Below are positions 35,621-41,659 of a stretch of 64,000 bases of DNA, one piece after another; position 1 is the stretch's first letter; every line of letters begins with the position of its first letter. The DNA comes from a virus, in IMG/VR virus record IMGVR_UViG_3300045125_000034, positions 1 through 64,000 of that record. The stretch is one strand, 5' to 3'. Made by a program: the position numbers and the translations under genes. The notes beneath the pieces are model-generated. The model was given only the letters and a program-made list of their open reading frames with translations. It was not told the origin of the DNA and ran no database searches.

Positions 35621-35895
35621 ATGATTGCTGCAATGACACGCGACGAATACAAGTCTGAACTTCGCAAGGGTATCTGTGAGATCACCTTCACCAAGAAGGA
35701 TGGCACAGAGAGAGTCATGCGTTGCACCCTCGCGCAGGCGCACATGCCCGTGCGCGAGTACGAGAAGGACGCTCACGGAGCCGAAGAGCCCACGCAAGGT
35801 CAACACCAACACTCTTGCGGTTTTGGGATTTGGACAAGGCGGCGTGGAGAGCATTCAACTTGGACAGCGTGAAACATTTCAAGCCCGCTGTCTGA
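35621..35895 (+). CDS. WYL_2/Sm-like SH3 beta-barrel phage protein, frameshifted
   Basis: About 90 aa behind AAGGAGC. TRDEYKSELRKGICEITFTK, KDGTERVMRCTLAQAHMP, KVNTNTLAV, then WDLDKAAWRAFNLDSVKHFK. The series GxxxxxFtKxDGteRxMrcTL ... vWDldkxaWRsFnxdsV is the WYL_2 (formerly DUF2693) family, very common in T4-like phages; function not established. Confidence 0.75.
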
Positions 35896-35901
35896 CCCCC
35901 T

Positions 35902-35975
35902 GTTCCCGTAACTCAGTTGGATAGAGTAGTTGCCTTCTAAGCAACAAGTCGCAGGTTCAAGTCCTGCCGGGAACA
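35902..35975 (+). tRNA. tRNA-Arg (UCU)
   Basis: Acceptor GTTCCCG / CGGGAAC, D-loop with TTGGATAGAG, anticodon arm GTTGC-CTTCTAA-GCAAC, T-arm GCAGG-TTCAAGT-CCTGC. Canonical cloverleaf. Confidence 0.95.
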
Positions 35976-35990
35976 GCTTACAATTTAATA

Positions 35991-36250
35991 TGCTCGTGGT
36001 AACTCAATTGGTAGAGTAGCCGACTTCAATAGGAGCGGTTTTGTAGGAATACAAAACATGAAACTCGTCAAATTCGGTGGACGGTTGAAAGACCCAACGC
36101 CGAGCCAAGCCCAAAAGGGAAGGTGTAGAGACTTGACGGCGGGCATTCAGAACGGATGAAGGCAAAGTCCAGACCACGAACTGTAAGGGCGGCGTAAGCC
36201 GAAGTGGTAAGTTAATCGGTGAGGTTGTGGGTTCAAGTCCCACCCAGGCA
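35991..36250 (+). tRNA. tRNA-Lys (UUU) interrupted by a group I intron
   Basis: 5' exon has D-arm sequence (CTCAATTGGTAGAGTAG) and CCGACTT; 3' exon continues TTAATCGGTGAGG and T-arm GTGGG-TTCAAGT-CCCAC, then CCAGGCA. Joining 36026 to 36212 gives anticodon arm CCGA-CTTTTAA-TCGG, anticodon TTT (Lys). The 5' acceptor (TGCTCGTGG) does not pair cleanly with TGCCTGG expected from the 3' side, probably a read error. Confidence 0.8.
36027..36211 (+). other. Group IC3 self-splicing intron in tRNA anticodon loop
   Basis: 185 nt with the conserved core of tRNA group IC3 introns (as in Azoarcus tRNA-Ile and cyanobacterial tRNA-Leu): GTCAAATTCGG (36067-36077), CAACGCCGAGCCAAGC (36095-36110), GGAAGGTGTAGAGACTTGAC (36118-36137) and GATGAAGGCAAAGTCCAG (36155-36172). 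P2 hairpin GTTTTGTA/TACAAAAC at 36038-36057. The 5' exon ends in T and the intron ends in G, as required. No ORF inside. Confidence 0.85.
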
Positions 36251-36291
36251 GCTTAGGGAGCACTAAATAGATTAGAGGAGTGTGCTAATCC

Positions 36292-36648
36292 ATGAACAAA
36301 TGCAAACATTGCAACAAGGAATTTAAATCTCATCCATCCAAACAATCAAAGAAAAAAGCAGAAGAATTATATGTGGTTCTTGTGCAGTTTCTAAAGAAGA
36401 TGGAAGACAAAAATTGAGTTTGTTGAATTATTAGGTGGTAAATGCCAAAGATGCGGGTTTAAAGGTCATCCGGGTGTGTTTCATTTTCACCATAAAGACC
36501 CATCACAAAAATCCCACGAATTAAATGGAAACGGTTTGTTGACAAAGAAAGATATAACGAACTTTCAAAGTGCGAATTATTGTGTGCTAACTGCCATCAA
36601 ATAGAACATTCAAACACAGATTTGATTAAAAGTTTTGGTCTGCTATAA
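36292..36648 (+). CDS. HNH endonuclease, frameshifted
   Basis: About 118 aa. MNKCKHCNKEFKSHPSKQSK zinc-finger head, then FVELLGGKCQRCGFKGHPGV, FHFHHKDP, KRFVDKERYNELSKCELLCA NCHQIEH. CxxC ... HFHHKDP ... LLCANCHQxEH is the HNH/treble-clef fold of free-standing phage homing endonucleases. It sits 40 nt after the intron-containing tRNA, so it may once have mobilised it. More AT-rich than its neighbours. Confidence 0.8.
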
Positions 36649-41573: not shown

Positions 41574-41581
41574 ACCTGTAT

Positions 41582-41655
41582 GGGATCGTAGACCAACGGC
41601 AGAGTCAACGGATTTAAAAATCCGTAAAGTATGGGTTCGAATCCCATCGGTCCTA
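41582..41655 (+). tRNA. tRNA with ambiguous anticodon (UAA or UUA), class I
   Basis: Acceptor GGGATCG / CGGTCCT, T-arm ATGGG-TTCGAAT-CCCAT, short variable loop. The anticodon arm ACGGA-TTTAAAAA-TCCGT has an 8-nt loop, so one homopolymer base is probably extra. Removing an A gives TAA; other corrections give TTA. A short variable loop is not expected for tRNA-Leu. Confidence 0.7.
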
Positions 41656-41659
41656 TAAT

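What the first reader, a model, noticed from the sequence alone, without database searches (positions are those of the whole stretch)
35991..36250. Phage tRNA-Lys split by a group IC3 intron
The intron core matches Azoarcus and cyanobacterial tRNA introns almost word for word (GCCGAGCCAAGC, GAAGGTGTAGAGACT, GATGAAGGCAAAGTCCAG). Such introns sit in bacterial tRNA genes; in a phage tRNA the element is unusual and, at 185 nt without ORF, compact. A phage could be a vehicle moving it between bacteria, and splicing may couple to infection.
Basis: partly seen in the sequence, partly recalled or inferred. Interest (0 to 1): 0.8.

Follow-up and report, generated by a model that had tools for sequence, protein, structure and literature searches.

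The report
Self-splicing intron in phage lysine tRNA
A T4-like virus of bacteria carries a lysine tRNA gene cut in two by a 185-base self-splicing RNA intron with a DNA-cutting enzyme gene right behind it, and many other phage tRNA genes turn out to have such introns, although a 2014 review (and the open papers I could search) had them only in phage protein genes.

Summary
Confirmed. Window 36027-36211 is a 185-nt group I intron splitting a tRNA-Lys(UUU) gene (35992-36251) between U34 and U35, in an IMG/VR T4-like phage contig (G000, 145 kb). Rfam RF00028 gives 48.4 bits (gathering 50); the intact relative L136 gives 50.6. Covariation across 34 tRNA introns supports the fold. The contig is indel-rich, but colinear contigs L136 and L144 carry the same tRNA-Arg/tRNA-Lys pair intact. 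It is not a singleton: of 121 viral-contig hits to one core motif, 86 sit in tRNA-like genes, mostly Leu(UAA), also Arg(UCU) and Lys(UUU), plus Gordonia phage Daredevil and Agrobacterium phage Atu_ph07, unannotated. A 2014 review states that all phage introns then known lay in protein genes; I found no later report in the searchable papers. Such genes are enriched beside intron-bearing phage tRNAs (10/27 locus clusters versus 5/251 intronless; p=3e-8). Likeliest reading: a self-splicing, phage-lineage intron that homes with this neighbour ('collaborative homing', known for cyanophage psbA). Splicing and homing are inferred, not shown. A bacterial donor is not supported, but not excluded.

The parts
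35901..35977 (+). tRNA-Arg(UCU), intact, immediately upstream; same order in L136, L144 and (intronless) L309
   Evidence: ARAGORN and RF00005 71 bits; order in relatives
35992..36026 (+). tRNA-Lys(UUU) 5' exon (D arm, 5' anticodon strand, C32 U33 U34); carries an indel relative to intact relatives
   Evidence: alignment with L136/L144
36027..36211 (+). group I intron, 185 nt, no ORF
   Evidence: RF00028 48.4 bits; 34-row covariation
36024..36026 (+). P1 5' strand CUU (tRNA positions 32-34), pairs with internal guide GAG 36033-36035; U-G wobble at the splice site, identical in 34 of 34
36038..36057 (+). P2 hairpin closed by GGAA (GNRA) loop 36046-36049
   Evidence: all 7 pairs counted show compensatory changes
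36064..36069 (+). P3 5' strand, pairs with 36138-36143
   Evidence: 100% paired, 4 pairs with compensatory changes
36074..36103 (+). P4-P5 arm
36104..36124 (+). P6-P6a arm
36130..36133 (+). P7 5' strand GACU, pairs with AGUC 36166-36169 (guanosine-binding helix, invariant)
   Evidence: 34 of 34 paired
36144..36158 (+). P8 hairpin
   Evidence: 100% paired
36173..36208 (+). P9.0 (36173-36177/36204-36208) and P9 hairpin 36190-36201 with GUAA (GNRA) loop
36212..36251 (+). tRNA-Lys 3' exon (U35 U36, anticodon 3' strand, variable loop, T arm, acceptor 3' strand); carries indels relative to relatives
36270..36290 (+). inverted repeat GATTAG-N9-CTAATC holding the Shine-Dalgarno-like AGGAG in its loop, just before the HNH start codon; conserved in L144, L044, L147
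36292..36648 (+). small HNH endonuclease gene (119 aa in L144), frame broken here by short indels in runs of A
   Evidence: tblastn in two frames; PHROG 2255 HNH E 1e-19, Pfam HNH 0.0018 (below its cut-off) on the L144 copy

Best explanation
A T4-like phage encodes a tRNA-Lys(UUU) whose anticodon loop is interrupted after U34 by a compact group I intron. After transcription the intron folds, pairs its guide GAG with exon CUU (positions 32-34), takes a guanosine into P7, cuts, joins the exons and restores a normal tRNA-Lys (inferred from structure and boundaries; no splicing data). The intron belongs to a family that sits in phage tRNA genes with U34 and C32, i.e. Leu(UAA), Arg(UCU), Lys(UUU), and probably reached the Lys gene from a phage tRNA-Leu intron. 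It has no nuclease of its own; the HNH gene directly 3' of the tRNA probably cuts intronless (or HNH-less) alleles of that region during co-infection, and repair copies HNH, tRNA and intron together, while the intron splits the target in the carrier and protects it ('collaborative homing'). The last step is inferred.
For: Intron: RF00028; 52 pairs over 34 introns 98.3% paired, 28 with compensatory changes, covariation score 0.522 against 0.170 +/- 0.009 shuffled and at most 0.092 slid; the anticodon stem across the intron covaries too. P1, P7 and terminal G fixed. Gene probably functional: intact copies in L136 and L144, colinear tRNA clusters. Phage: T4-type DNA polymerase, baseplate hub/lysozyme, baseplate wedge, DnaB. 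Family: 79 introns with CUU|...G| boundaries, 53 Leu(UAA), 16 Lys(UUU) (six of these bacterial), 10 Arg(UCU). Complete phage genomes: Daredevil Lys, Atu_ph07 Leu, LR756501 Leu, LR756511 Leu with HNH inside. Lineage: 7 window-type Lys introns form one clade (100/97) next to phage Leu introns L027 and L098 (95/97 for the nine). HNH: the four close database relatives of this HNH all lie directly 3' of a tRNA-Lys, three split and one (L391) intronless; L136 differs from L144 by lacking the HNH; enrichment of HNH beside split tRNAs 10/27 against 5/251 clusters, p 3e-8, or 7/27 against 4/251, p 1e-5 with a model built without those loci; ribosome-site hairpin conserved, as in T4 segB, mobE and I-Tev genes (PMC2988022).
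Against: No splicing or cleavage was measured. The window copy of tRNA and HNH is broken by indels, taken as sequencing error by inference. L391 and L537 have an HNH beside an intronless tRNA, so at least there the HNH is not held off by an intron. L136, L148, L007, L141 keep the intron without this HNH, so the intron does not depend on it. Intron tree bootstraps had not settled and some branches are long.
Confidence: 0.7

Rival explanations
1. The intron is real and splices, but the HNH is an independent free-standing homing gene that targets the tRNA region, like T4 segB, and the two share a neighbourhood without cooperating.
For: HNH beside intronless tRNA-Lys in L391 and tRNA-Leu in L537; introns without HNH are common; T4 segB sits between tRNA genes (PMC2988022).
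Against: Strong enrichment beside split tRNAs compared with intronless ones of the same three kinds; HNH directly 3' of the tRNA in several clusters.
Confidence: 0.35
2. The intron came from a bacterial tRNA gene and the phage shuttles it between bacteria.
For: Bacterial tRNA-Lys introns at the same site exist in Bacteroidota, Rhodothermales and Poribacteria; the Daredevil Lys intron does group with one on a Microbacterium contig (99/96); holding the window clade together with bacterial Lys introns is not rejected (p-AU 0.108).
Against: Best tree puts the window clade with phage Leu introns; a single origin of all Lys introns (p-AU 0.023) and of all phage Lys introns (0.0097) is rejected.
Confidence: 0.15
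3. The split is an adaptation: an unspliced tRNA-Lys escapes anticodon nucleases such as PrrC, or splicing times tRNA supply in infection.
For: The intron sits in the loop that PrrC-type nucleases cut (established knowledge); phage tRNAs counter tRNA-cutting defences (PMC7824862).
Against: Such introns sit mostly in tRNA-Leu(UAA), also in Arg(UCU); the spliced product is an ordinary tRNA; no regulatory feature was found in the intron.
Confidence: 0.07
4. The window tRNA is a dead gene with a decaying intron.
For: Indels in acceptor arm and variable loop; broken HNH frame.
Against: DNA polymerase and other genes of the contig are broken in the same way; HNH indels are in runs of A and the remaining codon differences from L144 are largely silent by inspection; relatives are intact.
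Confidence: 0.06

Closest known systems
Group I introns of bacterial tRNA genes (subgroup IC3: Azoarcus tRNA-Ile, cyanobacterial tRNA-Leu(UAA), proteobacterial tRNA-Arg)
   Same: Core words, size, P1 on the anticodon loop, GNRA loops on P2 and P9, no ORF; same U34 site as tRNA-Leu(UAA) introns
   Different: Phage genome, tRNA-Lys(UUU), own clade near phage tRNA-Leu introns
Group I introns of phage protein genes (T4 td, SPO1 polymerase, Twort nrdE)
   Same: Phage-borne group I introns
   Different: Those interrupt protein genes; Hausner et al. 2014 state that all phage introns known then do (PMC3984707)
Collaborative homing of F-CphI and the psbA intron in cyanophage S-PM2
   Same: Intron-bearing gene in a T4-type phage with a free-standing endonuclease gene next door; presence and absence of each part vary
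   Different: tRNA gene instead of psbA, HNH of another family; cleavage specificity not shown here (PMC6083498)
T4 SegB
   Same: Free-standing homing endonuclease in a tRNA cluster with its ribosome site in a hairpin
   Different: GIY-YIG, intergenic target, no intron (PMC2988022)

Membership tests
Group I introns (RF00028) | Covariance-model score | tested here: met
   48.4 bits in the window, E 2.2e-11, 1.6 below gathering; 50.6 in intact relative L136, over gathering
Group I introns (RF00028) | Conserved fold P2-P9 with P3/P7 pseudoknot | tested here: met
   52 pairs, 98.3% paired, 28 with compensatory changes; P7 is paired in all rows but invariant, so says nothing by covariation
Group I introns (RF00028) | U before 5' site pairing with G of the guide; intron ends in G | tested here: met
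   U-G in 34 of 34; all 79 introns end in G, but they were selected with that rule
Group I introns (RF00028) | Self-splicing with guanosine | not testable with these tools
   needs transcripts
Subgroup IC3 | Best match to an IC3 subgroup model | not tested
   no subgroup model in the library; core words and GNRA L2/L9 agree from memory of Azoarcus
tRNA-Lys(UUU) | Cloverleaf with UUU after splicing | tested here: met
   ARAGORN calls it in L136 and L144; the window copy itself is not called
HNH homing endonucleases | HNH motif and profile match | tested here: met
   PHROG 2255 E 1.3e-19; Pfam HNH 18.8 bits, below its 21.4 cut-off
Collaborative homing systems | Free-standing endonuclease gene beside the intron-bearing gene | tested here: met
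   window, L144, L044, L147; enrichment
Collaborative homing systems | Endonuclease cuts the intronless allele at the insertion site and the intron blocks it | not testable with these tools
   needs cleavage assay

The most novel reading that the evidence does not exclude
Phage tRNA genes are a main, overlooked home of group I introns: a phage lineage of compact introns spreads among U34 tRNAs (Leu, Arg, Lys) in cooperation with small HNH endonucleases encoded just behind the tRNA, a collaborative homing system aimed at the anticodon loop.
Probability: 0.4. Interest if true: 0.75.

Novelty: new variant of a known kind. Interest (0 to 1): 0.62.

Why it matters
The 2014 review states that, in spite of many phage tRNA genes, all phage introns then known were in protein genes. 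This finding and its relatives contradict that: the introns are common in viral contigs and present, unannotated, in complete genomes of cultured phages, partly because standard tRNA and Rfam scans miss them. Phage tRNA repertoires are therefore undercounted. The HNH association makes collaborative homing, known from one well-studied case, testable on a compact system, and links intron spread to phage-phage competition. Cultured phages with laboratory hosts (Gordonia terrae, Agrobacterium tumefaciens C58) make splicing testable now.

Tried and rejected
Alternative genetic code: TGA read as Trp opens longer frames in the window, but conserved DNA polymerase pieces are separated by frame changes, which indels explain and recoding does not; rejected. 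Phage as bacterial shuttle: bacterial tRNA-Lys introns were found, but the tree does not join the window clade to them. The genome pattern scan was too loose; most of its hits are chance. A first regular-expression search for endonucleases was too strict and missed known HNH genes; replaced by HMMs. First P7 column assignment was out of register by two and was redone. A 35-nt BLAST query and a too-long query gave nothing. A cyanobacterial sample with the exact core pattern gave no match, which says nothing of their introns, since RF00028 does find them. MFE folding of the window alone is weak evidence (z -1.27).

Full report
Observation. The window lies in G000, an IMG/VR virus record of 145,204 bases. 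A default Rfam scan of the window lists 14 tRNAs and no intron; a permissive scan of 35890-36350 gives RF00028, group I catalytic intron, 36017-36193, 48.4 bits, E 2.2e-11, full length, against a gathering score of 50. The same model gives 50.6 bits in L136 and 48.5 in L144. The intron runs from 36027 to 36211, 185 nt, between ...GACUU and UUAAUC..., ending in G. Exons joined give the loop CUUUUAA, anticodon UUU, tRNA-Lys.

Is the tRNA real? In the window, ARAGORN does not call it, with or without introns. Two related contigs, L136 (84 kb) and L144 (119 kb), are colinear with the window around the tRNA cluster and carry tRNA-Arg(UCU), then tRNA-Lys(UUU) with a 185-nt intron, and both are called as tRNA-Lys. 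Against L144 the window differs by short indels in the acceptor arm, the variable loop and, in the following gene, in runs of A, while other differences in that gene look mostly silent (silent is by inspection, not by a computed rate). The DNA polymerase of the contig lies in several frames. I conclude that the contig has sequencing errors and that the gene is probably intact in the virus; this is inference until reads are seen.

Structure. Thirty-four introns (the window, 32 from viral contigs, one from a Microbacterium contig) were aligned with their anticodon stems. RNAalifold finds the group I fold unaided. With P1 and P7 added, 52 pairs in 12 helices are 98.3% paired; 28 pairs have compensatory changes; the covariation score is 0.522 against 0.170 (sd 0.009) in shuffles, none of 500 as high, and at most 0.092 when partners are slid. 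The pre-tRNA anticodon stem across the intron covaries as well, which ties intron and tRNA together. P1 (CUU with GAG, U-G at the splice site) and P7 do not vary, so they add no covariation evidence. P2 ends in GGAA and P9 in GUAA, GNRA loops as in IC3 introns (from memory). The IC3 subgroup itself was not tested with a model.

The virus. T4-type DNA polymerase (about 50% identity to cyanophage S-CAM3), a baseplate hub and tail lysozyme, a baseplate wedge, DnaB helicase and tail fibres show a T4-like tailed phage.

How common. ARAGORN with introns places 86 of the cores inside a tRNA. ARAGORN's isotype labels are often off because it misplaces the boundary; with the rule CUU|...G| and a closing anticodon stem, 79 introns were delimited (including six bacterial ones and the window): 53 Leu(UAA), 16 Lys(UUU), 10 Arg(UCU). 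All insert after U34 of a C32-U33-U34 loop; that is partly built into the rule. Some IMG/VR contigs may be prophage or misassigned, so named phages matter: Gordonia phage Daredevil tRNA-Lys(UUU) with a 238-nt intron beside its tyrosine integrase, Agrobacterium phage Atu_ph07 tRNA-Leu(UAA) with a 278-nt intron, partly under a hypothetical-protein call, and uncultured huge phages LR756501 (Leu, 205 nt) and LR756511 (Leu, 700 nt with an HNH-like reading frame inside). None is annotated as a tRNA in these records (the last two have no annotation at all); the Atu_ph07 paper lists 33 tRNAs and mentions no intron (PMC6102473).

Lineage. In a tree of 70 introns the seven window-type Lys introns form one clade (100/97) with phage Leu introns L027 and L098 as nearest relatives (95/97 for the nine). 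Daredevil's Lys intron groups with a Microbacterium contig (99/96), and L037 stands apart. One origin of all phage Lys introns is rejected (p-AU 0.0097), as is one origin of all Lys introns (0.023); joining the window clade to the Bacteroidota and Poribacteria Lys introns is not rejected (0.108). So transfer between tRNA genes within phages is the best reading for the window, with host exchange plausible for Daredevil. Bootstrap values had not settled.

The neighbour. Directly 3' of the split tRNA-Lys lies a small HNH gene (36292-36648), in L144, L044 and L147 as well; L136, of the same lineage as L144, lacks it; L148, L007, L141/L143 lack it. A scan for this HNH in viral contigs returns four close relatives, all directly 3' of tRNA-Lys: L144, L044, L147 with the intron, and L391 with an intronless tRNA-Lys. 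L309 has an intronless tRNA-Arg/tRNA-Lys pair and no HNH. Thus all four combinations occur. The start codon follows GATTAG-N9-CTAATC with AGGAG in the loop in all four intron-bearing copies; T4 segB, mobE and I-Tev genes have ribosome-site hairpins (PMC2988022).

Is that association general? Loci with intron-bearing phage tRNAs and loci with intronless tRNA-Lys, tRNA-Leu(UAA) and tRNA-Arg(UCU) were compared for HNH genes within 1 kb. After grouping loci with similar flanks: 10 of 27 intron clusters against 5 of 251 intronless clusters (Fisher p 3e-8); with an HMM made only from more distant HNH genes found outside these loci, 7 of 27 against 4 of 251 (p 1e-5).

Mechanism. Shown: intron, boundaries, fold, tRNA context, HNH adjacency. 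Inferred: self-splicing; cleavage of intronless alleles by the HNH; protection by the intron. The model is collaborative homing as described for F-CphI and the psbA intron of cyanophage S-PM2, where the free-standing enzyme cuts the intronless gene and the intron prevents self-cleavage (PMC6083498). HNH beside intronless tRNAs (L391, L537) shows that the enzyme can also live without the intron, as expected of a free-standing homing gene; it leaves the neighbour-only rival open.

Novelty. Hausner et al. [quoted passage not shown] Nine searches of open papers found no later report of phage tRNA group I introns; most subscription papers and preprints were not searchable, so priority is not claimed.

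Noticed in passing
window 1-64000: Frames are broken throughout by short indels; genes such as the DNA polymerase at about 52.7-54.1 kb lie in several frames. Annotation of this contig by ORF calling will be misleading.
   Followed up: partly
window 41581-41656: tRNA with an unusual anticodon loop (reported as taaa), perhaps tRNA-Leu(UAA) with an indel.
   Followed up: no
L148:10619-11046 and L044:3360-3753: ARAGORN calls a permuted tmRNA with tag ANRMAMAA near the Lys-intron loci of related phages.
   Followed up: no
L125 (LR756511.1), tRNA at 819-1605: tRNA-Leu(UAA) of a 595-kb phage has a 700-nt group I intron with an HNH-like reading frame inside it: a self-contained version of the same kind of element.
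   Followed up: partly
L123 (Gordonia phage Daredevil), 1340-1651: Split tRNA-Lys stands next to a tyrosine integrase gene and may be the attachment site.
   Followed up: no
L124 (Pelagibacter phage HTVC120P) and L127 (KT997847): A similar intron core lies between two pieces annotated as capsid protein, i.e. probably an intron in the capsid gene.
   Followed up: no
L168, L183, L208, L218, L200, L188: Bacterial contigs (Bacteroidota, Rhodothermales, Poribacteria, Microbacterium) with introns in tRNA-Lys(UUU) at the same site; I recall no description of bacterial tRNA-Lys introns.
   Followed up: partly
L098, tRNA-Leu locus: An HNH frame of 269 aa starts 15 nt after the analysed 3' exon stretch, overlapping the end of the tRNA-Leu gene; this intron is among the nearest kin of the window clade.
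   Followed up: partly
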